IMG/VR virus record: IMGVR_UViG_3300026518_000669
Location: 1 to 56,451 of that record
Length of the DNA stretch: 56,451 nt
Reading direction: 5' to 3' (one strand)
From: a virus
The first letter of the stretch is position 1. Every line of letters starts with the position of its first letter. The notes below the pieces were generated by a model, which was not told the origin of the DNA, made no database searches, and was given only the letters and a program-made list of their open reading frames with translations. Positions 11,644 through 56,451 of the stretch are shown here, piece after piece. A program made the translations under genes and the position numbers.

Positions 11644-12363
11644 TCAATCAAAAACTTCCCACCAAAACACGCGGCCTATAATTTTCGGTGAGTCCGGCCC
11701 CATCAGGCTATAAGTCTCTTCGGGATACTCGTCTGCATTGTCGCTAACCAAGCGCACGCGCCCCAGGGGCATCTTGTAGAGGCGCTTAATGCGCAGCATG
11801 CCCCCGTGGTCGAGCGCGTAAATCTTGCCATCGATGATGTGGCGAGTGCCCTTGTCGATAGCAATAGGGGAGCCATCGGCAATCGTGGGCATCATGGAAG
11901 TGCCGCTGGCAGTTGCGCAGGCGGCATTGCTGGGCGAAACGTTGCGCGCAGCCAGCTTGCTTAACGGGAAGCGCATGGTGTGACCACCGTTTTCAACTAC
12001 CTGCGTGCGGCCATCACCAGCAGCAAACTCTACTTCTCTAAAGCACGGCAGCTCTACCTCATCAGGCCTTAGTGGCGCGGCGCCTTCTACAATTTCGGTC
12101 GGGTGCAGTATTAACTCATCCGTACCCGCCGAATATCCAGCGCGAGGATCGCGGGCACCTTCCATCATGCCTTCGCCAGTCGCCAGCCAGCGGGCATCCA
12201 CCCCGCAGACAGAAGCTATCTGAACGAGGTACGCGCTTGAGCGTGATTCTCCGCGCTCAAGTTCAGAGAGAGAGGGTTGGGTAATGCCAATCGCCTTGGC
12301 CAACTCTCGCTGATTCAGCCCTGCGTGTTTGCGGGCACGCTTCACCCGGTCGCCGATATTCAT
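11644..12363 (-). CDS. cI: CI-like repressor (HTH plus S24 peptidase)
   Basis: The 239-residue protein has an XRE helix-turn-helix (residues ~5-60, LNQRELAKAIGITQPSLSEL) and a C-terminal S24 self-cleavage domain with Ser156 in SGTSMMP and Lys193 in RIKRL. An Ala-Gly bond in EFAAGDG (~115) is a candidate cleavage site. It would hold lysogeny and be inactivated by RecA after DNA damage. I start it at 12363, where no ribosome site is present, because the PRM -10 lies only eight bases away. The message is thus probably leaderless, as lambda cI from PRM. An in-frame start at 12450 would lie across the operators. Confidence 0.93.
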   Translation of the reverse strand: MNIGDRVKRARKHAGLNQRELAKAIGITQPSLSELERGESRSSAYLVQIASVCGVDARWLATGEGMMEGARDPRAGYSAGTDELILHPTEIVEGAAPLRPDEVELPCFREVEFAAGDGRTQVVENGGHTMRFPLSKLAARNVSPSNAACATASGTSMMPTIADGSPIAIDKGTRHIIDGKIYALDHGGMLRIKRLYKMPLGRVRLVSDNADEYPEETYSLMGPDSPKIIGRVFWWEVFD

Positions 12364-12371
12364 ATTTAAGC

Positions 12372-12400
12372 AAGATATAGGCTGGCCTATATGCTTGCAA
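12372..12400 (-). promoter_or_regulatory. Repressor maintenance promoter (PRM)
   Basis: On the minus strand TTGCAA (12400-12395) and TATCTT (12377-12372) stand 17 bases apart. Transcription would start at about the ATG at 12363, giving a leaderless message. The -35 hexamer is a palindrome shared with PR on the other strand. Confidence 0.65.
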
Positions 12401-12456
12401 AAAGGAGTTCCTATATCTAATATATCGGTAATCCTTTCAGTATTAGGCATACCTAT
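12377..12456. promoter_or_regulatory. Right operators (ATAGG-N4-CCTAT array)
   Basis: Three good sites are visible: 12377-12390 (ATAGGCTGGCCTAT, flanked to TATAGGCTGGCCTATA), 12401-12414 (AAAGGAGTTCCTAT) and 12443-12456 (TTAGGCATACCTAT). A weaker one is at 12424-12437 (ATCGGTAATCCTTT). Centres are 24, 23 and 19 bases apart. They cover the PRM spacer, the PR spacer, the PR start and the Cro start codon. Confidence 0.82.
12395..12423 (+). promoter_or_regulatory. Rightward early promoter (PR)
   Basis: TTGCAA (12395-12400) and TAATAT (12418-12423) are 17 bases apart and precede the Cro-like gene at 12455. An operator fills the spacer. Confidence 0.82.
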
Positions 12457-30988: not shown

Positions 30989-32185
30989 ATGTTTAACGGC
31001 TCCCGTTTCAATGGGGCAGCATACAATGCTGGCTCTGGGGGTGTTCGCGTCCTGCTGGCATCGGCTGTGCTGGCGGTTTCATCTACCGGAAATGCGGAGC
31101 CGTTGCGCACCCAGTATGGCGCAACGGATGCGCCTGTTCAGGCTGGCATCCATGAGCCACGAGCGGTAGCTGAGCGCGCAGCCTCAACACTGATCTACCC
31201 AGCGGCCATCTTTGATGTTTCGCGGCCATGGGACTTGGCCACCGCCGAGATGTGGGCGACGGGCAGCTTAGAACCTGAGCACCTAGTTATTCGGGCTGGC
31301 GTCGCGGGCATTGAAGCAAAGGCTGTCTTGGGTGCTGACGCCATTCGCTACGCCTTCTTCTCTGACATGCAGGCGTCGGCGCAGATTGGTCCGGTTCAGG
31401 CTTGGGGCATTCGCCCTGGCGTCGCTGAGATTCAGGTAAACGCTACCGGCGAGATATTTGCAACGCGAGAGCGGCCCGGGGCAAGCGGCCTGCTGGCAAC
31501 AGCAACAGCGTCGTTTGATGGAGATATATTCGCTGGCGGCATTACTGATTTTGTGCCGTACAGCGCCTTCTTTGCAGAGCCCCACCTAAACGGCATCCAG
31601 CCCGGGTGGTCTGCCCTAGATGTTGTTACCCGTCTAACTGTCGGCGGCGACCGCATGGCGGGCGGAAATACGGACGGCTTAGTGGCGTCTTGGTTTGATG
31701 CGTCGGCTTTGCCAGGGCGCGGCGCGCAGGTAAACGAAGGCATCGTTACCGCTGAGCTAACGGCTGTTTGGTGGGCGTTCAACTATGAAAAGTGCACGTT
31801 CACGACTCAGTCAGCCCTGACGGCAAACCCTACGCGAACGTCAGCAGGCGTCTCTACGCTCGATGCGAAAGCATTTGTAACAGCCCCCTGGTCGCTGATT
31901 GTTGAGCCCCGCAAAACCCTCGTTGTTAGTGGCGCATCACTAACGGCCACGCCTTGGCGCATACGACCTGTAGCAGCTGATGCCAGCGTGGAAGGCACTG
32001 CCTACGCCTACGCCAACCGCATCTACTACTTGAGCGTTACCTTCGATGGGGTGGGGTCGGTTATGCGCAATCGCTTGAGCGTCAATCTAACGAATCAAGC
32101 GCCCCCTGCTCGCCAGATGGTCGCGCCTTTCGAGTCGCGCGCCATGGTGGTGCCTGCGGAAAATCGGACAATGGTGGTTTTTTAA
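30989..32185 (+). CDS. Virion structural protein, unknown function
   Basis: The 398-residue protein begins MFNGSRFNGAAYNAGSG and is beta-rich with repeated Ala/Thr/Val segments of similar type (for example IRAGVAGIEAKAVLGADAIR and IRPGVAEIQVNATGEIFATR), as if built of repeated beta modules. It lies within the tail genes just before the fibre adaptor. It may be a tail or fibre shaft component; no family is recognised. Confidence 0.7.
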   Translation: MFNGSRFNGAAYNAGSGGVRVLLASAVLAVSSTGNAEPLRTQYGATDAPVQAGIHEPRAVAERAASTLIYPAAIFDVSRPWDLATAEMWATGSLEPEHLVIRAGVAGIEAKAVLGADAIRYAFFSDMQASAQIGPVQAWGIRPGVAEIQVNATGEIFATRERPGASGLLATATASFDGDIFAGGITDFVPYSAFFAEPHLNGIQPGWSALDVVTRLTVGGDRMAGGNTDGLVASWFDASALPGRGAQVNEGIVTAELTAVWWAFNYEKCTFTTQSALTANPTRTSAGVSTLDAKAFVTAPWSLIVEPRKTLVVSGASLTATPWRIRPVAADASVEGTAYAYANRIYYLSVTFDGVGSVMRNRLSVNLTNQAPPARQMVAPFESRAMVVPAENRTMVVF

Positions 32186-32481
32186 TGGCTATTTTAGGCA
32201 CGTTCACGATGCAGCCCGCTGACGAGTGGGATTACGACATTGATTACAGCGAGTGGATGCCCGAATCCGACGGCCTTTCGGAAAATGTCGCGCCGGAAGT
32301 GACGGCATCGCCGGAGGGCTTGATGGTCGAGTCAGTGACGCGTGACTACGACAACAAGCGCGTGAAAGTTTGGCTGTCTGGCGGTGCGGATGGCGAGCGC
32401 TATAAGATAGAGATAACGACGCGGACGCGAGAAGGCCGTGTCCGCCAAGATGAATTTTTTGTCATCGTGAGAGAATTTTAA
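32185..32481 (+). CDS. Fiber-tail adaptor-like protein
   Basis: The 98-residue protein has the pattern of the small phage fibre-tail adaptor family: an N-terminal WDYDIDYSEWM segment, then one immunoglobulin-like beta domain (VESVTRDYDNKRVKVWLSGG; YKIEITTRTREGR) and FFVIVREF at the end. It would join the diversified fibre protein, encoded next, to the tail. Its ATG overlaps the preceding stop by one base. Confidence 0.78.
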   Translation: MAILGTFTMQPADEWDYDIDYSEWMPESDGLSENVAPEVTASPEGLMVESVTRDYDNKRVKVWLSGGADGERYKIEITTRTREGRVRQDEFFVIVREF

Positions 32482-32482
32482 C

Positions 32483-34366
32483 ATGCCGGAAATTTACGCG
32501 AACAACGCTCGCGGCAAGCTAGCTTCTCCTGTCACGGCAGGGGATCAAAGCCTGCCCCTTGAGGCGGGCCATTCTTTCCCAGATCCGGGCGGTGATTGGT
32601 ACCGCGCGACGCTTTATCGCTGGGAGTTTGCGAGTGACGGCATCCGTGAATTTGACCACGAGATCGTTAAGGTGACCGCGCTCTCATCCAATACAATGAC
32701 AGTTGAGCGCAGCCAAGAGGGTACGGTGGCATTCGCCTATGACCCTGGCACGCCTGTTGAGCTGCGCATGACAGCGGGCAGCCTGGCCGAGAAGCCTGCA
32801 GATACGCTTGCGGTGATGCAGTCGCTCACTTCACCGCCTGAAATTCGCGATATCGATACTTGGTCGATTGATGCCACGGCCATTAGTCGCCAGAGCGGTG
32901 GCAGTATCGCGTCGTTTGAGGTGACGTGGTGGGACGGCAGTACCGAAGCAGTGGCGGCAGCTGGCGGCGCGGCCACGCTCTCCAGAGCGGTGGATCAGCC
33001 AGTAGGAGGTGTCGTTTCAGCAACCGTGCGAGCGCTTGACGACATCGGCAATGCCAGCGCACCCGAGACCGTTACGGCTGATGTAGTTGCCAACCGCGTG
33101 CCGGAAGGCCCTGTTGTGATAAGCGCGCCCACCCAGACCGGCAAGAACAGCACGTTCCAAGTTTCTTTTAGTGGCGCGACCGACCCGGACGGCGATTCGA
33201 TCAGCTACACGATCACTGACACAGGCGCGTTCACCTTTGCCAAGACGTCGGGCATTGCTGGCGGAGAGATTGTAGAAGTCACGGCGCCCGATGTTACTGA
33301 CGATATCGCTATCACGTTTAGCGTGAAGGCAGTGGACAGCCTTGGCGCCTCGACAGCCACCTATAGCGAAACAGTGACCGTGCTGGCTGCCCAGGTTATT
33401 GGCGTCGCGCTGCGCGCCACGGGCGGCCCTGGCGGTACGTGGGATCATATCGACGATACCGGCGCAACCATTGCCACTCCTAGCGCCTCCTGGTTTAACG
33501 CTCATCCTATTTTTGGCGGCATGCAAGATGTCACGGTGGATGGTCAGGCTATGGTCGAAGTGCCGAAATTCTACGTAAAGCGCGGCACCGCAGGCGGCGA
33601 CCCCGCGTGGTGGATTAGCGACCAACCGCTGGCGGGGTATGAGGTGCATCCTGCGTTTCTGCTAGATGGCGTCGAGGTGCCCGCGTTTCAGTACGGCAAA
33701 TATCAGGCATCGCTCAGCGGCGGCAAGCTGCAGTCTGTGCCGGGCGTTACGCCAACGGCATCGCGCAGCTTGACGCAGTTCCTGGCAGATGCCGAGGCCC
33801 GTAACGTGGGCGGCGTCGCTGGCTTTAGGCTGCACCACTACGACATGTGGCTGGCCATTCAGTGGTTATACCTGGTCGAAAACGCGACGATGGATAGCCA
33901 AACGAAAACGGGCGAGGGCCGCGTTAATCAGTCCAGCGCCGCCGCTGTCGATGCCGCTGACGTAGCCCAAGCGACGTATCGCGGCATCGTTGGGCTATGG
34001 GGTAACGTCTATCAGTGGATGGACGGAGCCCGTACGCTCAATAGTGTCATTGAGCGGCGTGACTATAACGGCGCGTGGCAAAGTACGGGCGAGAGCGTTC
34101 CTAACGCTGGTGCCGCCACTTACCCCATCACGTTCCGCAATTCAGCCCCGCTAGAATTTATCCCCGACACCTATTCAACCAGTAACGACAGCACCGCCAC
34201 GCTGCCGGACTACGTGCGGTGGCGTGATGCTGGGGAGTATTACCCCTACGTCGGCGGCTACTGGAGCGTTGGCGCGATTGCCGGGCTTTGGTACGTGTAC
34301 TGCGGCAATTCGGCGTCGAGCTCGAGCAGCTTCATCGGGGCGCGTCTCGCGAGGGTCGTGTCATGA
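32483..34366 (+). CDS. DGR-diversified tail/receptor-binding protein
   Basis: The 627-residue protein has an N-terminal tail-attachment beta domain (~1-105), a cadherin/fibronectin-like module (~205-300, GATDPDGDSISYTITD) and a C-terminal formylglycine-enzyme/C-type-lectin fold (~380-627, GIVGLWGNVYQWMDGA). The last 40 residues are encoded by the variable repeat. Residues matching template Asn codons are Y593, V596, I599, Y606, G608, N609, S613, S615 and F617, on the face that binds ligand in this class. It would be the receptor-binding tip, diversified by the adjacent reverse transcriptase. The stop overlaps the avd start (ATGA). Confidence 0.93.
   Translation: MPEIYANNARGKLASPVTAGDQSLPLEAGHSFPDPGGDWYRATLYRWEFASDGIREFDHEIVKVTALSSNTMTVERSQEGTVAFAYDPGTPVELRMTAGSLAEKPADTLAVMQSLTSPPEIRDIDTWSIDATAISRQSGGSIASFEVTWWDGSTEAVAAAGGAATLSRAVDQPVGGVVSATVRALDDIGNASAPETVTADVVANRVPEGPVVISAPTQTGKNSTFQVSFSGATDPDGDSISYTITDTGAFTFAKTSGIAGGEIVEVTAPDVTDDIAITFSVKAVDSLGASTATYSETVTVLAAQVIGVALRATGGPGGTWDHIDDTGATIATPSASWFNAHPIFGGMQDVTVDGQAMVEVPKFYVKRGTAGGDPAWWISDQPLAGYEVHPAFLLDGVEVPAFQYGKYQASLSGGKLQSVPGVTPTASRSLTQFLADAEARNVGGVAGFRLHHYDMWLAIQWLYLVENATMDSQTKTGEGRVNQSSAAAVDAADVAQATYRGIVGLWGNVYQWMDGARTLNSVIERRDYNGAWQSTGESVPNAGAATYPITFRNSAPLEFIPDTYSTSNDSTATLPDYVRWRDAGEYYPYVGGYWSVGAIAGLWYVYCGNSASSSSSFIGARLARVVS
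34243..34353 (+). repeat. DGR variable repeat (VR)
   Basis: This 111-base segment at the end of the tail-protein gene aligns without gaps to 34809-34919. It differs at 11 sites, each an adenine in the template (six now T, five now G). The GC-rich last 20 bases are identical and would be the initiation-of-mutagenic-homing region. Confidence 0.95.
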
Positions 34367-34776
34367 GTCAGGCAAATCAGCGTCAAGCTCAGGGGCGCGG
34401 TAGCGCCCCGTACCAACACCTTCGACCCTTTGAGGGCATGCTCACTAAGGTGGAAGAGCTGGAAGATTACAGTCGTCGAGCCCTGGTGAATTTTCCGAAA
34501 AGTGAGCGACACTTGCTCAGCGCGGAGGTGCGGCTGTGTATTGAGCGCATCGAGCGAATCACGCTTACTGCATGGAAGCGCTATCAGAAGAAAACCACCC
34601 TCACCGACTTGGATATTGAGATAGAGATACTACGCCGCAAGGTGCGCAAGGCCGAGCGGTACGGCTATATCTCAGGTCGCCAATATAGAGATTGGGCAGA
34701 ACACATAAGCGCTCTGGGGTCTATTCTTGGCGGCTGGCTGCGCCACGAACGGGCCAAGCAGGGCTATAGCAAGTAG
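34363..34776 (+). CDS. avd: DGR accessory variability determinant (Avd)
   Basis: The 137-residue basic protein is nearly all helical (MLTKVEELEDYSRRALVNFP, LCIERIERITLTAWKRYQKK, IEILRRKVRKAERYGYIS, ISALGSILGGWLRHERAKQG). This is the four-helix-bundle pattern of Avd, which forms a pentamer that binds the reverse transcriptase and template RNA. Its position between the variable repeat and template repeat, and its size, match Bordetella phage Avd. The ATG at 34363 overlaps the fibre stop; a frame opening at 34288 runs through the variable repeat and is rejected. Confidence 0.92.
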   Translation: MSQANQRQAQGRGSAPYQHLRPFEGMLTKVEELEDYSRRALVNFPKSERHLLSAEVRLCIERIERITLTAWKRYQKKTTLTDLDIEIEILRRKVRKAERYGYISGRQYRDWAEHISALGSILGGWLRHERAKQGYSK

Positions 34777-34808
34777 AGCAAGAAAGGGAAGTCGCTTATT
34801 TCGATGTG

Positions 34809-34919
34809 CCCCTACGTCGGCGGCAACTGGAGCAATGGCGCGAATGCCGGGCTTTGGTACGTGAACTGCAACAATTCGGCGTCGAACTCGAACAGCAACA
34901 TCGGGGCGCGTCTCGCGAG
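34809..34919 (+). repeat. DGR template repeat (TR)
   Basis: This 111-base noncoding segment lies between avd and the reverse transcriptase. In the register of the tail gene it holds nine Asn codons (AAC/AAT), the codons that give widest change under adenine mutagenesis. Eight of the nine differ in the variable repeat. It has 24 adenines; 11 are changed. Confidence 0.95.
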
Positions 34920-34943
34920 CGACCGCTTTACCGGCCAGAAACC

Positions 34944-35043
34944 GCCCGCCTACGGGTTGGCGGGCAGTGCCACATCCCTCGGGGCGGCTTTCCTCGCTTC
35001 ACGGCGAAACATCAATAGAGCGCGGCGGCCTACGGGTGGCCGC
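34944..35043 (+). other. DGR spacer RNA with two hairpins sharing a loop
   Basis: Between template repeat and reverse transcriptase lie GCCCGCC-TACGGGTT-GGCGGGC (34944-34965) and GCGGCC-TACGGGT-GGCCGC (35025-35043). Both carry the loop TACGGGT although their stems differ. In known retroelements the spacer RNA binds the reverse transcriptase and primes cDNA synthesis. Confidence 0.65.
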
Positions 35044-35078
35044 GTTTCATTTTGCACAAACTGCATAAGGACAATGCG

Positions 35079-36125
35079 GTGTCGCTTTATCAAGACATTA
35101 TTGATTTCGATAACCTCATGCGCGGCTATCATGCCGCCAGAAAGCGCAAGCGCTACCGGCCAGAGGTGGTGAAATACACCGCCAACCTGGAAGAAAACCT
35201 CCTAAACCTTCACAACCACTTGGTTCACGAAACATGGCAACCGGGCCGCGCCAGAGAGTTTGTGGTGCTGGAGCCTAAAATGCGGATGATTCAAGCCCCA
35301 CCGTTTAAAGATCGGGTGCTGCATCACGCCGTGGTGGACTTGGTAGAACCACTATTTGAGCGCAGGTTTATCTATCACAGCTACGCCTGTCGCAAGGGAA
35401 AGGGCACCCAAGCAGGGGTGCTTGCTCTGCAACGCATGCTCAGAAAAGCTAAGCGGCGCTGGGATAGTGTGTACGTCGTACAGGCAGACGTAAGCAAGTT
35501 TTTCGACTCGCTGCCCCATGATGCCGTACTAGACAGTATTTCTCAGACGATTGACTGCCCAGATACACTGCAACTGTGGCGCGCCATGATACGCGGCTAT
35601 GGCCATGATGACGGCATCGGACAACCGGTGGGCGCGCTTAGCAGTCAGCTAAACGCTAACGCCACCCTAGATGGTGTCGACCATGAAATGACCGACGACC
35701 ACGGCGCAGGGCAATACGTGCGCTATATGGATGACATAGTGATCGTTTGCCCAAGCAAAGCCGAAGCCTGGCAGCGGCTACACCAGCTGCAAGCGGCGCT
35801 AGAGCGGCGCGGTCTATCACTCAACCCTAAAACCCAAGTACGCCCTGCCAGCGCGGGCGTGGATTGGTGCGGCTACCGCATATGGGCCACCCACATACTG
35901 CCCCGCAAGCGCAACATTCAGCGCTTTAAGCGCCGCCTGAAAATCCTACAGCGCCGTTATGCCCGAGGTGACGCCAGCCTGGACGAAGTGCAGCAACATC
36001 TACACGCCTTCCTGGCTTACGCCAAGCACTGCGATAGCTGGAATACCGTTAACCACCTAGTGGACCAACTCACCCTGAAGCGAGATTTTGCCGATGTCGA
36101 ATTTGCAGATTGTCACTACGCCTGA
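35079..36125 (+). CDS. brt: DGR reverse transcriptase
   Basis: The 348-residue enzyme has the retroelement palm: catalytic Asp137 in QADVSKFFDS, the DGR-specific VGALSSQ block (184-190) in place of the usual motif 4, YMDD at 216-219, and a C-terminal thumb (RFKRRLKILQRRYARG). It would copy the template RNA with errors at adenines; the cDNA replaces the variable repeat. I choose the GTG at 35079, which has TAAGGA seven bases upstream. An in-frame TTG at 35052 has no ribosome site and follows a hairpin directly. Confidence 0.95.
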   Translation: MSLYQDIIDFDNLMRGYHAARKRKRYRPEVVKYTANLEENLLNLHNHLVHETWQPGRAREFVVLEPKMRMIQAPPFKDRVLHHAVVDLVEPLFERRFIYHSYACRKGKGTQAGVLALQRMLRKAKRRWDSVYVVQADVSKFFDSLPHDAVLDSISQTIDCPDTLQLWRAMIRGYGHDDGIGQPVGALSSQLNANATLDGVDHEMTDDHGAGQYVRYMDDIVIVCPSKAEAWQRLHQLQAALERRGLSLNPKTQVRPASAGVDWCGYRIWATHILPRKRNIQRFKRRLKILQRRYARGDASLDEVQQHLHAFLAYAKHCDSWNTVNHLVDQLTLKRDFADVEFADCHYA

Positions 36126-36708
36126 CGGGCGCGCCCTTGAGCACGATGGGCAGCAAATCCCGCTGCCTGCGTTAGCCGTTGATGCCATTGTTCACGCTTA
36201 CGCTACCCCCGCTGGACTGTGGGCGGGCGTGCAGAAGCCCGGCGAGCCGCGCCCGGTCTATCCTGGCGGCGGTGGGCAAAAGCTGGGGAGCGTTGAGCTA
36301 GAGGCCGATGCGGTCGCACTGCTTGAGGCGGAGCGTAATCGTAAGCAGGCCGACTTAAACGCTGCGCGTGATGACGCCTTTGCGGCAGGGATGCTCTACC
36401 AGTTTGATAACGGCGACGATGTCGTTCAGACGCGCCCGCAAGATCAGATCAACCTTATAGGGTTGTCAGCGAAGGCACAGCGACAAATAGCGGCAGGTGA
36501 CAACACGCCAATGCCGTTTCGTGGCTTATCCAACGAAACGCGACTGTTAGAGCCTCGCGAGATGGACGCCATGGCTATGACCGCGCTTGCTCACATCGAA
36601 GGCATATACGCGCGAAGCTGGGCGAGAAAAGACGCTGTAGATGCAGCGACAACCCAGGCGGAGATCGACGCTATTAGCTGGGAGGTAGGCAGTGAAGATC
36701 CAGCATAG
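36094..36708 (+). CDS. Tail-fibre-associated protein, DUF4376-like
   Basis: The 204-residue protein has a small N-terminal beta domain (MSNLQIVTTPDGRALEHDGQ) and a DUF4376-like helical domain (~75-200: ERNRKQADLNAARDDAFAAG, YQFDNGDDVVQTRPQDQ, IDAISWEV). Such domains occur in fibre-assembly and tail proteins. The ATG at 36094 overlaps the end of the reverse-transcriptase gene. It may assist folding of, or attach to, the diversified fibre. Confidence 0.8.
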   Translation: MSNLQIVTTPDGRALEHDGQQIPLPALAVDAIVHAYATPAGLWAGVQKPGEPRPVYPGGGGQKLGSVELEADAVALLEAERNRKQADLNAARDDAFAAGMLYQFDNGDDVVQTRPQDQINLIGLSAKAQRQIAAGDNTPMPFRGLSNETRLLEPREMDAMAMTALAHIEGIYARSWARKDAVDAATTQAEIDAISWEVGSEDPA

Positions 36709-52516: not shown

Positions 52517-52924
52517 CTATTGCATGCACGCTCTAACAACTGCTTCTTGGGCTTCAGAAATATCCAGGCTATCAACCGCGCACTCCTGAAGTTCTTTCAG
52601 TATTGCGGCGTCAAGCGTGCAGATATCGGAAATAACACCGGAGAACTTCTTCTGAAGCGCTTCGCTTGCCTTGAGTTCATAGTAAACGTCTAGGCACACC
52701 CAAGTTGTTTTCTGTAGATAGCAGGTATGCAGCGGAAGATGGAAGTTTGGGAATCGGTCTTCAGGCTGGCAACCATAAACATTGCCACGCCCATGCTGCT
52801 TGGAGGTGGTTTTAGCCACGACGGCGACACCGTCTTTGAAGCCCAAGACAACAAATAATTTCTCGCCCGATACGCCATCATGGAAATGAAAATCTCTATC
52901 GAAAAACACTGACCCTGGCGTCAC
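52517..52924 (-). CDS. MazF/PemK-like toxin candidate, partner of DUF4065 gene
   Basis: The 135-residue protein has a beta-barrel-like front (GSVFFDRDFHFHDGVSGEKL, FVVLGFKDGVAVVAKTTSKQ), then FPNFHLPLHTCYLQKTTWVC and a helical end. This resembles the small SH3-barrel (PemK/MazF-like) ribonuclease toxins found with SocA/Panacea-type antitoxins. It follows the DUF4065 gene with a 29-base overlap, the usual antitoxin-toxin order. The GTG at 52924 gives the family-like start PGSV. Toxin activity is inferred from context and pattern. Confidence 0.66.
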   Translation of the reverse strand: MTPGSVFFDRDFHFHDGVSGEKLFVVLGFKDGVAVVAKTTSKQHGRGNVYGCQPEDRFPNFHLPLHTCYLQKTTWVCLDVYYELKASEALQKKFSGVISDICTLDAAILKELQECAVDSLDISEAQEAVVRACMQ

Positions 52925-53477
52925 CGCGTAAGCTCTCCATTAGCTGCTGATGCTCGTTGGCAACGGCCATGACCTCATCGCGCTCTTGCGCTCGCACTGC
53001 AAGATCGTAAGGAATTTTTTCTTGCTGCCCGCCCCATTGATTGAATACCTTGTCCCATGGCTGGTTTTCCAGGTGGGTCGCTTCAATCATGTCTTCGGCC
53101 TTATGATGCTCAAATTCTTTAGCAAGGCGCTCCATAAGCTTGCGCTCTCGCTTGCTGAAATGGGAACCATCAAATTGAGCCTTAGGCTTGAAGGTAAGCA
53201 TAGGGCGGCCATACCCAGTGGGTATTTCGGTAAAATCAATCGCCTTTGCCATGTCCGGTTCAGGGCAGTTGATCTCATCAAAAAGGCTCTGCGGAACCGG
53301 TCCCATCTTCCAGGCGTAGTAATCCTGACCGGTCACATTGCGGCCAGTATCCTTAAAATGCTCAAAATCGAGGAAGTAGAGCAGCTTGAAAAGCTTAATC
53401 TTCCCGCATTTCTGTGTGTTCTGTGCGAAGTAGATGATCGTATTAATCAACTTCTCGCGTTCGTGTGTCATTAACAT
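52896..53477 (-). CDS. DUF4065 (Panacea/SocA-type) antitoxin
   Basis: The 193-residue protein has the DUF4065 core near its N terminus: EKLINTIIYFAQNTQ, KIKLFKLLYFLDFEHFKDTG, then GQDYYAWKMGPVPQSLFDEI. In PanAT systems this domain neutralises very different toxins by direct binding; SocA is a proteolytic-adaptor relative. The gene overlaps the partner gene by 29 bases. Such pairs can act as anti-phage abortive systems. GAGG nine bases before the ATG at 53477 decides the start over one at 53501. Confidence 0.85.
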   Translation of the reverse strand: MLMTHEREKLINTIIYFAQNTQKCGKIKLFKLLYFLDFEHFKDTGRNVTGQDYYAWKMGPVPQSLFDEINCPEPDMAKAIDFTEIPTGYGRPMLTFKPKAQFDGSHFSKRERKLMERLAKEFEHHKAEDMIEATHLENQPWDKVFNQWGGQQEKIPYDLAVRAQERDEVMAVANEHQQLMESLRGDARVSVFR

Positions 53478-53608
53478 GGTGGCGACCTCGCGTACTGGCA
53501 TTGCCAGCGCGCTCGATATAGCTCCTGCTGAATTTTTTTTGCGTACGCTACATACGTTACAACATAGCGCATATTGCTACATCTTAGATAGCGAATAGGG
53601 GAGAAGGT

Positions 53609-55630: not shown

Positions 55631-55691
55631 GTCTTGAAAACCGGCATAGGTTAATAGCCTATCCAGGGTTCGAATCCCTGTCCCTCCGCCA
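55631..55691 (+). pseudogene. attR: attR: 3' remnant of tRNA-Ser(UGA)
   Basis: The stretch has the anticodon loop (CTTGAAA, anticodon TGA), the 3' side of the anticodon stem, the long serine variable arm (ATAGG-TTAA-TAGCCTAT), the T arm (GGTTCGAATCC) and the acceptor 3' side with CCA. The 5' acceptor strand and D arm are missing: upstream bases do not give GGAGGGA or a D loop. This is the copy left when a phage inserts in a tRNA gene; the intact gene should lie just left of the window. Confidence 0.85.
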
Positions 55692-55696
55692 TTATT

Positions 55697-55740
55697 AAAA
55701 AAGCCCGTAGAGTCAACGACTTGCGGGCTTTGATTTTTTT
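55697..55740 (+). terminator. Host terminator of the original tRNA gene
   Basis: AAAGCCCG/CGGGCTTT with a 16-base loop is followed by GATTTTTTT. It lies six bases after the tRNA remnant and also has an A-run for the other strand. Confidence 0.8.
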
Positions 55741-56178
55741 GCATTCTAACCACTTTTTCTAACCATTTTTTTGAGAGCTATTCTCAGGTAGTCATACTGG
55801 ATAGATTTCCAGTTTCATGGTGAAAAGTCGGTTCCCCTCCTGACCTTCTTTCTAGCCTTTCATTCTGCTGGGCACCTAACCGATATGGGCCGCCGCGCTG
55901 TAGCGAGCGCCACCGATCCCGCCGCTAGTCAGCCGACACGCCCCGCCGAACTCCCGCTGGGGCCGGGTGACAAGTAGCGCTGAAATTGATGTGAGCGAGC
56001 CGCACCGGGTGCGGTTGATTGTTGTTTAGTCGAAGTCTCAAGCATTCGATGCTGTGGAGGTGGTGGTCATAGCCAGCCGTAAAAGGTGACGAACCGCACC
56101 TTTTACGCTGAAACTATGGGCAACGCATTGATTTAGCGTGATTCCTTCAGAGAGTCGGAATTATAGCCACACGCCACC
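55741..56178. other. Host intergenic stretch
   Basis: No gene longer than chance is seen. Two hairpins stand out: CCGCAC-CGG-GTGCGG near 56000, and a perfect 11-bp stem CGTAAAAGGTG/CACCTTTTACG with an eight-base loop at 56078-56107, downstream of the BrnA gene. Neither has a T-run, so their role is unknown. Confidence 0.5.
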
Positions 56179-56451
56179 TTAGCGGCTGTGGCTGTGCTCT
56201 TGAATGTACGTCTTTAGCGCCTGATCTATGCGCCGTTGCCAGCCTTCACCTTGCGCCTTGAAGTGCTCGATCACTTCCGGCGATAAGCGGATGGAAGTCT
56301 TTACCTTGGTGGGTGCCTGCTGGCGGCCACGCTGACCAATGGCGCGTTGTAGGTTAGCGGGCAACACCTCAGACATAGGGCGCATCTGCTTAACGTCCTG
56401 GTCTGTGAGTTCTCTTACTTCACCGTCTTTATTCGTGAGCCGCGTTTTCAT
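56179..56451 (-). CDS. brnA: BrnA-type antitoxin
   Basis: The 90-residue protein has the BrnA pattern: RPMSEVLPANL in the middle and a C-terminal ribbon-helix-helix (KVKTSIRLSPEVIEHFKAQG, then WQRRIDQALKTYI). BrnA binds the ribonuclease toxin BrnT and represses their operon. The start codon is the last triplet of the window. brnT normally precedes brnA, so it would lie just outside on the right. It is host DNA, beyond attR, unless a second element is present. Confidence 0.88.
   Translation of the reverse strand: MKTRLTNKDGEVRELTDQDVKQMRPMSEVLPANLQRAIGQRGRQQAPTKVKTSIRLSPEVIEHFKAQGEGWQRRIDQALKTYIQEHSHSR

What the first reader, a model, noticed from the sequence alone, without database searches (positions are those of the whole stretch)
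32483..36125. Complete diversity-generating retroelement in a prophage
Target gene with variable repeat, Avd, template repeat and reverse transcriptase lie in the order known from Bordetella phage BPP-1. The enzyme has YMDD and the DGR-type VGALSSQ block. All parts look intact, so the phage could alter its tail tip by mutagenic retrohoming. The host background and the FGE/lectin tip differ from the founder.
Basis: partly seen in the sequence, partly recalled or inferred. Interest (0 to 1): 0.95.

Follow-up and report, generated by a model that had tools for sequence, protein, structure and literature searches.

The report
Active DGR in a temperate phage
This phage carries a complete, apparently working gene-mutating cassette, a diversity-generating retroelement like that of Bordetella phage BPP-1, which keeps rewriting the tip of its tail fibre; it is a well-made new example of a known kind of system rather than a new kind.

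Summary
All parts of a diversity-generating retroelement (DGR) are present and intact at the stated coordinates: target, variable repeat (VR), avd, template repeat (TR) and reverse transcriptase. All 11 VR/TR mismatches fall on TR adenines.

Two near-identical phages (99.7% and 99.4%) have the same TR but different VRs: 11/11 and 13/13 VR differences lie at TR-adenine sites. Against one of them, all seven amino-acid changes in the 627-residue target lie in the VR. The element has therefore been active in nature.

The prophage is integrated in tRNA-Ser; its attR is in the window.

The cassette is a mobile module. A phage with a tape-measure gene (long tail) carries the block 95-100% identical in most 100-nt windows, with unrelated flanks.

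It is a new member of a known kind. The most novel unexcluded point lies in relatives: in two contigs the TR itself is rewritten at adenines towards VR sequence, either real back-transfer or an artefact.

The parts
32483..34366 (+). DGR target gene: tail fibre / receptor-binding protein, 627 aa
   Evidence: ORF; phrog_5302 tail protein 7e-41
32483..32800 (+). N-terminal virion anchor of the target (residues 1-106)
   Evidence: phmmer to podophage tail fibre 8jov_1, residues 5-117, 9e-12; 34-41% to Bcep22-type and other phage tail fibres; replaced by unrelated sequence in L003/L017 and L006/L009
32801..33394 (+). Middle region of the target, probably Ig-like/cadherin-like (residues 107-304)
   Evidence: Weak Hoc-like hit, residues 201-302; shared with relatives at about 65-70% DNA; fold inferred
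33395..34363 (+). C-terminal C-type-lectin / FGE-type variable domain
   Evidence: AF2 pLDDT 93.2, pTM 0.93; Foldseek best 5vf4 TaqVP 1.8e-15, then TvpA and Mtd
34243..34353 (+). Variable repeat (VR)
   Evidence: hypervariable at TR-A sites among relatives
34335..34362 (+). Putative IMH region: 3' end of VR that matches TR, then diverges
   Evidence: TR/VR identical 34335-34353, then diverge; function inferred from BPP-1
34363..34776 (+). avd, accessory variability determinant
   Evidence: PF22296 2.6e-19; phrog_3206 5e-27; dN/dS about 0.06 against L006 and L017
34392..34409 (+). Target-site DNA hairpin GGGGCGC-GGTA-GCGCCCC, inside the avd reading frame
   Evidence: Only GRNA-loop hairpin with stem of 7 bp or more on the + strand of the window; covaries in relatives; in 32/73 DGR loci after VR, 0/73 after TR, 16/3650 control windows; DNA fold -11.1 kcal/mol, z -2.65
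34809..34919 (+). Template repeat (TR), 24 adenines
   Evidence: unchanged in four relatives whose flanks differ by 0.65-5.7%
34920..35048 (+). Structured spacer (Sp) RNA element 3' of TR, likely priming/recruitment RNA
   Evidence: 12 of 21 pairs with changes on both sides, 92% paired against 31-50% when slid; model R1 98 bits in window, same place in most DGR relatives
35079..36125 (+). DGR reverse transcriptase
   Evidence: PF00078 3.4e-24; phrog_1423 5.7e-113; 8ub7 4e-49; tree; dN/dS about 0.03-0.04
36094..36708 (+). DUF4376 tail-fibre-assembly-like gene; its first about 90 codons travel with the cassette
   Evidence: PF14301 1.1e-17; shared with L003 over residues 1-92 only
32185..32481 (+). 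Fibre-tail adaptor (podophage GP4 gp77-like)
   Evidence: PF23148 1e-18
55631..55691 (+). attR core, 61 bp, 3' end of tRNA-Ser(TGA)
   Evidence: Identical core in L124 attL beside a whole tRNA-Ser; same site as attP in L123
1..1095 (-). Tyrosine integrase
   Evidence: phrog_1 1.2e-74
11644..12450 (-). CI-like repressor
   Evidence: phrog_4 4.2e-51

Best explanation
This is a complete DGR in a temperate phage with GP4/Bcep22-like virion genes, and it has been active in nature. Inferred cycle, by analogy with BPP-1: the avd-TR-Sp-RT transcript is made; RT and Avd bind the structured Sp RNA and prime cDNA synthesis into TR; the RT misreads template adenines; the mutated cDNA replaces the VR in the 3' end of the tail-fibre gene, with the initiation site fixed by the IMH and the GRNA hairpin, which lie only on the VR side. 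New C-type-lectin tips result and may bind different receptors. Shown here: the parts, adenine-only VR variation on an unchanging TR, purifying selection on RT and avd, and compensatory changes in the hairpin and the Sp RNA. Inferred: each biochemical step and the receptor-binding role.
For: TR/VR mismatches 11/11 at A. L004 (99.67% over 10,226 bp): 34 differences, 11 in the 111-bp VR, all at TR-A, TR unchanged; L010: 13 in VR, all at TR-A, TR unchanged; enrichment P = 3e-14 and 5e-14, and all seven amino-acid differences from L004 in the target lie at residues 589-617, inside VR. Fifteen pairwise comparisons of six relatives give only TR-A differences in VR. TR shows 0-4 changes in 17 of 22 related pairs compared. 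RT dN/dS about 0.03-0.04. RT tree. Hairpin and Sp RNA. Target fold. Lysogeny.
Against: No reads were available, so variation within one culture or sample was not seen. Relatives are metagenome assemblies. The Sp RNA model does not match BPP-1's spacer, so its role is by position, covariation and published BPP-1 work. Avd gives no sequence hit to a solved structure. The hairpin lies 38 nt from VR, just outside the published 4-34 (PMC3240598).
Confidence: 0.95

Rival explanations
1. A DGR that was active once but is now inactive in this prophage; the VR is a frozen product.
For: No direct activity assay was possible. L009, a relative, has a frameshifted RT, so such decay occurs.
Against: RT, avd, TR, Sp RNA and hairpin are all intact in the window, RT dN/dS is about 0.03, and L004, 99.67% identical, has a different VR on the same TR.
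Confidence: 0.06
2. VR alleles differ because phages exchange tail-fibre ends by homologous recombination, not by retrohoming.
For: The cassette clearly recombines between phages, and a mosaic patch at 33385-33688 separates L010 from the window.
Against: Recombination can spread alleles but does not explain why VR differences fall only on TR-adenine sites, with no silent changes between them.
Confidence: 0.03
3. The RT is a group II intron, retron or defence RT and the repeat is coincidental.
For: TIGR04416 and PADLOC RT models match weakly, as for any bacterial RT.
Against: The NCBIfam matches are all below their curated cut-offs. The RT has GALSSQ where the group II RTs have G..SP, and falls on the DGR side of a 100/100 branch; Avd, TR/VR and Sp RNA accompany it.
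Confidence: 0.01

Closest known systems
Bordetella phage BPP-1 DGR (mtd-avd-TR-brt)
   Same: Same order target-VR, avd, TR, RT; YMDD and G.L[ST]SQ; adenine-only mutagenesis; GRNA-loop hairpin after VR.
   Different: RT 33.6% identical. The target is not Mtd by sequence and resembles it only weakly by fold (1yu0, E 1.3e-3). The hairpin lies inside avd here, between mtd and avd in BPP-1. The Sp RNA does not match BPP-1's.
Thermus aquaticus DGR variable protein TaqVP (5vf4)
   Same: Best structural and sequence-profile match of the variable domain (Foldseek 1.8e-15; profile 8e-66).
   Different: Here the domain is fused to a phage virion anchor; about 20% identity in the structural alignment.
Phage DGRs of Roux et al. 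2021 (PMC8144416)
   Same: C-terminal VR with C-type-lectin fold in a tail protein; broad activity in nature; intragenic recombination of targets proposed there.
   Different: Which of their clades this RT belongs to was not tested.
DGRs of Vibrio phage vB-Vv-ZX4290 and Aeromonas phage phiWae15
   Same: RT 39.7% and 38.4%; both have the hairpin and the Sp RNA.
   Different: Hairpin upstream of avd, not inside it.
Podophage GP4 and Bcep22-type (Lessievirus) podoviruses
   Same: gp77-like adaptor, gp80-like fibre protein, tail-fibre N-terminus.
   Different: The target matches of the GP4 and Lessievirus fibres cover only its N-terminal part, without the lectin domain.

Membership tests
Diversity-generating retroelement | RT of the DGR clade with YMDD and [VL]G...SQ | tested here: met
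   Motifs; DGR RTs against group II introns 100/100
Diversity-generating retroelement | TR/VR pair with mismatches at TR adenines only | tested here: met
   11/11, P 5e-9
Diversity-generating retroelement | VR at the 3' end of a target with a C-type-lectin fold | tested here: met
   AF2 and Foldseek
Diversity-generating retroelement | Accessory protein Avd | tested here: met
   bAvd and phrog_3206; just below NCBIfam's cut-off, 76.8 of 80 bits
Diversity-generating retroelement | Cis hairpin with GC stem and GRNA loop after VR, absent after TR | tested here: met
   34392-34409
Diversity-generating retroelement | Structured spacer RNA 3' of TR | tested here: met
   Covariation and covariance model; not homologous to BPP-1's at this sensitivity
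Diversity-generating retroelement | VR varies at TR-adenine sites while TR and flanks stay fixed | tested here: met
   L004, L010, L003, L017
Diversity-generating retroelement | RT- and TR-dependent mutagenic retrohoming in the laboratory | not testable with these tools
   Needs culture
BPP-1-type element with Mtd target | Target homologous to Mtd | tested here: not met
   No sequence match to Mtd; Foldseek E 1.3e-3, TM 0.38
Temperate phage / prophage | Integrase, repressor and att sites | tested here: met

The most novel reading that the evidence does not exclude
In this DGR family the template is not an immutable master copy. In two relatives TR has been rewritten at adenines towards VR sequence. 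L005 against L017: flanks 0/1021 different, TR 7 different, all at adenines and all equal to the VR base. L006 against L007: flanks 2/1380, TR 9 different, seven at ancestral adenines (all A>T), seven equal to its own VR. If real, VR-to-TR back-transfer would store successful binding solutions in the template and narrow later search around them.
Probability: 0.3. Interest if true: 0.65.

Novelty: new member of a known kind. Interest (0 to 1): 0.4.

Why it matters
It gives a well-documented natural case in which same-phage contigs show DGR output directly. It adds two points that a specialist can use. First, the whole DGR plus lectin-tip block moves between a phage with podovirus-type virion genes and one with a tape-measure gene, joined to different virion anchors, so a self-diversifying receptor-binding module can be acquired ready made. 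Second, the cis-acting hairpin can sit inside a protein-coding gene, where the argument of PMC8144416 expects such elements to be intergenic. The possible rewriting of TR by VR would, if true, question the one-way flow usually assumed.

Tried and rejected
A second VR in the window: none. Folding the whole target from three near-identical sequences: useless, pLDDT 29; replaced by a 40-sequence alignment of the C-terminal domain. Rfam: no match above gathering scores. BPP-1 Sp homology: none even with filters off. De Bruijn chimerism as the cause of the L005 TR: the left switch would have to fall in a 10-bp shared run, which makes a k-mer artefact unlikely, but amplification chimeras or consensus errors stay open.
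Full report
WHAT IS THERE. The window is a whole IMG/VR record. At 32483-36125 lie, in order and on the + strand: a 627-aa tail-fibre gene, the variable repeat VR (34243-34353) at its 3' end, avd (34363-34776), the template repeat TR (34809-34919) and a reverse transcriptase (35079-36125). TR and VR are 111 nt without gaps. All 11 mismatches are at TR adenines, P = 5e-9 for random placement. With adenines as wildcards no other place in 56 kb comes near (43/87 against 87/87). Codons with A in TR are AAC, AAT, TAC, AGC and ATC, none of which can mutate to a stop at A; full randomisation would allow about 4e13 protein variants.

RT AND AVD. The RT matches phrog_1423 (5.7e-113) and the solved reverse transcriptase 8ub7 (4e-49), which I take from memory to be the BPP-1 enzyme. 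NCBIfam group II, retron and DRT models match only far below their cut-offs. In a tree with four group II intron RTs the 19 DGR RTs, including BPP-1, are one side of a 100/100 branch (some long branches, so inner order is rough). Avd matches bAvd. dN/dS is 0.03-0.04 for RT (against L003 and L006) and about 0.06 for avd (against L006 and L017), so both are kept by selection.

IT HAS BEEN ACTIVE. Relatives came from IMG/VR. L004 is 99.67% identical over 10,226 bp: 34 differences, of which 11 are in the 111-bp VR, all at TR-A sites; TR is identical. L010 shows 13 VR differences, all at TR-A, TR identical. Enrichment P = 3e-14 and 5e-14; against L004 every amino-acid difference in the target falls in VR. 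Among six relatives, every VR difference in 15 pairs is at a TR-A site. L003 and L017 keep TR unchanged although their flanks (avd to RT) differ by 3.6 and 5.7%. VR bases at TR-A sites in five phages are A 66, T 26, G 24, C 4.

A 7-bp GC stem with loop GGTA lies at 34392-34409, 38 nt after VR; it is the only hairpin on the + strand of the window with a stem of at least 7 bp and a GRNA loop. In BPP-1 such a hairpin (7-10 bp, GRNA loop, 4-34 bp from VR) is required for efficient homing (PMC3240598). Relatives carry GGGGCGT-GATA-ACGCCCC and GCGGCC-GGTA-GGCCGC: different stems, pairing kept. Of 73 DGR loci 32 have one within 70 nt after VR and none after TR; control windows 16/3650. In the window and its nine nearest relatives it lies inside the avd frame, because avd starts at the target's stop (ATGA, with GAGGG 7 nt upstream); in BPP-1, Vibrio ZX4290 and Aeromonas phiWae15 it lies before avd. 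The compensatory change at stem position 7 (C-G to T-A) alters Avd (AGC to AAC), and the frame survives a one-codon indel in L008. The avd start is inferred: the bAvd domain begins near residue 28.

Between TR and RT lies a structured RNA: RNAalifold finds 16 of 25 pairs with compensatory changes. On a trimmed alignment 92% of cells pair, 12 of 21 pairs have changes on both sides and no shuffle reaches it; slid versions pair 31-50%. The model finds it just 3' of TR in most DGR relatives, including Vibrio and Aeromonas phages, but not in BPP-1 and not as an Rfam family. In BPP-1 the spacer folds, recruits RT-Avd and primes cDNA (PMC12875486); the same role here is inferred.

TARGET. Residues 1-106 resemble the tail-fibre N-terminus of the podophage structure 8jov and of Bcep22-type phages. 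Residues 305-627 fold with pLDDT 93; nearest solved structures are TaqVP, TvpA and Mtd, then FGE-like enzymes such as EgtB and PvdO, and viral tail collar fibres in BFVD.

PHAGE AND INTEGRATION. Integrase, CI-like repressor, DnaB, terminase, portal and major head protein, GP4-like gp77 and gp80. The L004 contig runs past window position 1 into 55691-55443, so the phage genome is circular; L124 shows the integrase end beside a whole tRNA-Ser(TGA) whose 61-bp 3' end recurs at window 55631-55691. So 55692-56451, with a BrnA antitoxin, is probably host DNA.

A MOBILE CASSETTE. L003 and L017 match the window only from within the target to the start of the DUF4376 gene. Identity of L003 is about 52-70% per 100 nt at 32900-33400, 86-100% from 33400 to 36290 except one stretch at the end of avd (78%), and random after 36300. 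L003 has a tape-measure gene upstream and lacks the window's terminase and head protein, so the tip and DGR block is shared between a phage with podovirus-type virion genes and a long-tailed one. L006/L009 carry it on a third backbone. PMC8144416 proposed such intragenic recombination.

TEMPLATE REWRITING, UNRESOLVED. TR is usually more conserved than its flanks; L092/L093, L093/L097 and L085/L086 also differ in TR but mostly not at adenines, with diverged flanks. In L005 and L006 TR differs at adenines while the flanks are (nearly) identical: 7 changes against 0/1021, all equal to VR; and 9 changes against 2/1380, P = 6e-4 for the adenine bias. The rewritten L006 TR occurs in one contig only. 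TR variants are known in Treponema denticola (PMC4891356), but I found no report of VR-to-TR transfer in the held library, which does not show that none exists.

VERDICT. Observation and interpretation hold. It is an ordinary kind of element, unusually well supported, with modest new detail.

Noticed in passing
L005:1514-1624 and L006:5735-5845: TR itself rewritten at adenines towards VR sequence while flanking DNA is (nearly) identical to relatives.
   Followed up: partly
window 33395-36290; L003:4317-7212: DGR plus lectin-tip block shared at high DNA identity between phages with otherwise unrelated tail genes.
   Followed up: yes
L122:657-4056: Ideonella dechloratans plasmid with two DGR cores in tandem (avd-RT-avd-RT) beside an integrase, each with an Sp RNA match.
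   Followed up: no
L015:53-155 and L015:8594-8696: One TR with two VRs, the second on the opposite strand: a DGR with two targets.
   Followed up: no
L009:5962-7046: RT split by a frameshift while its VR differs from near-identical L007: recent decay or an assembly error.
   Followed up: no
window 55631-56451: attR in the 3' end of tRNA-Ser; sequence beyond it, with a BrnA antitoxin, is probably host chromosome.
   Followed up: yes
window 52896-53501: SocA/Panacea-domain antitoxin-like gene near the right end of the prophage.
   Followed up: no
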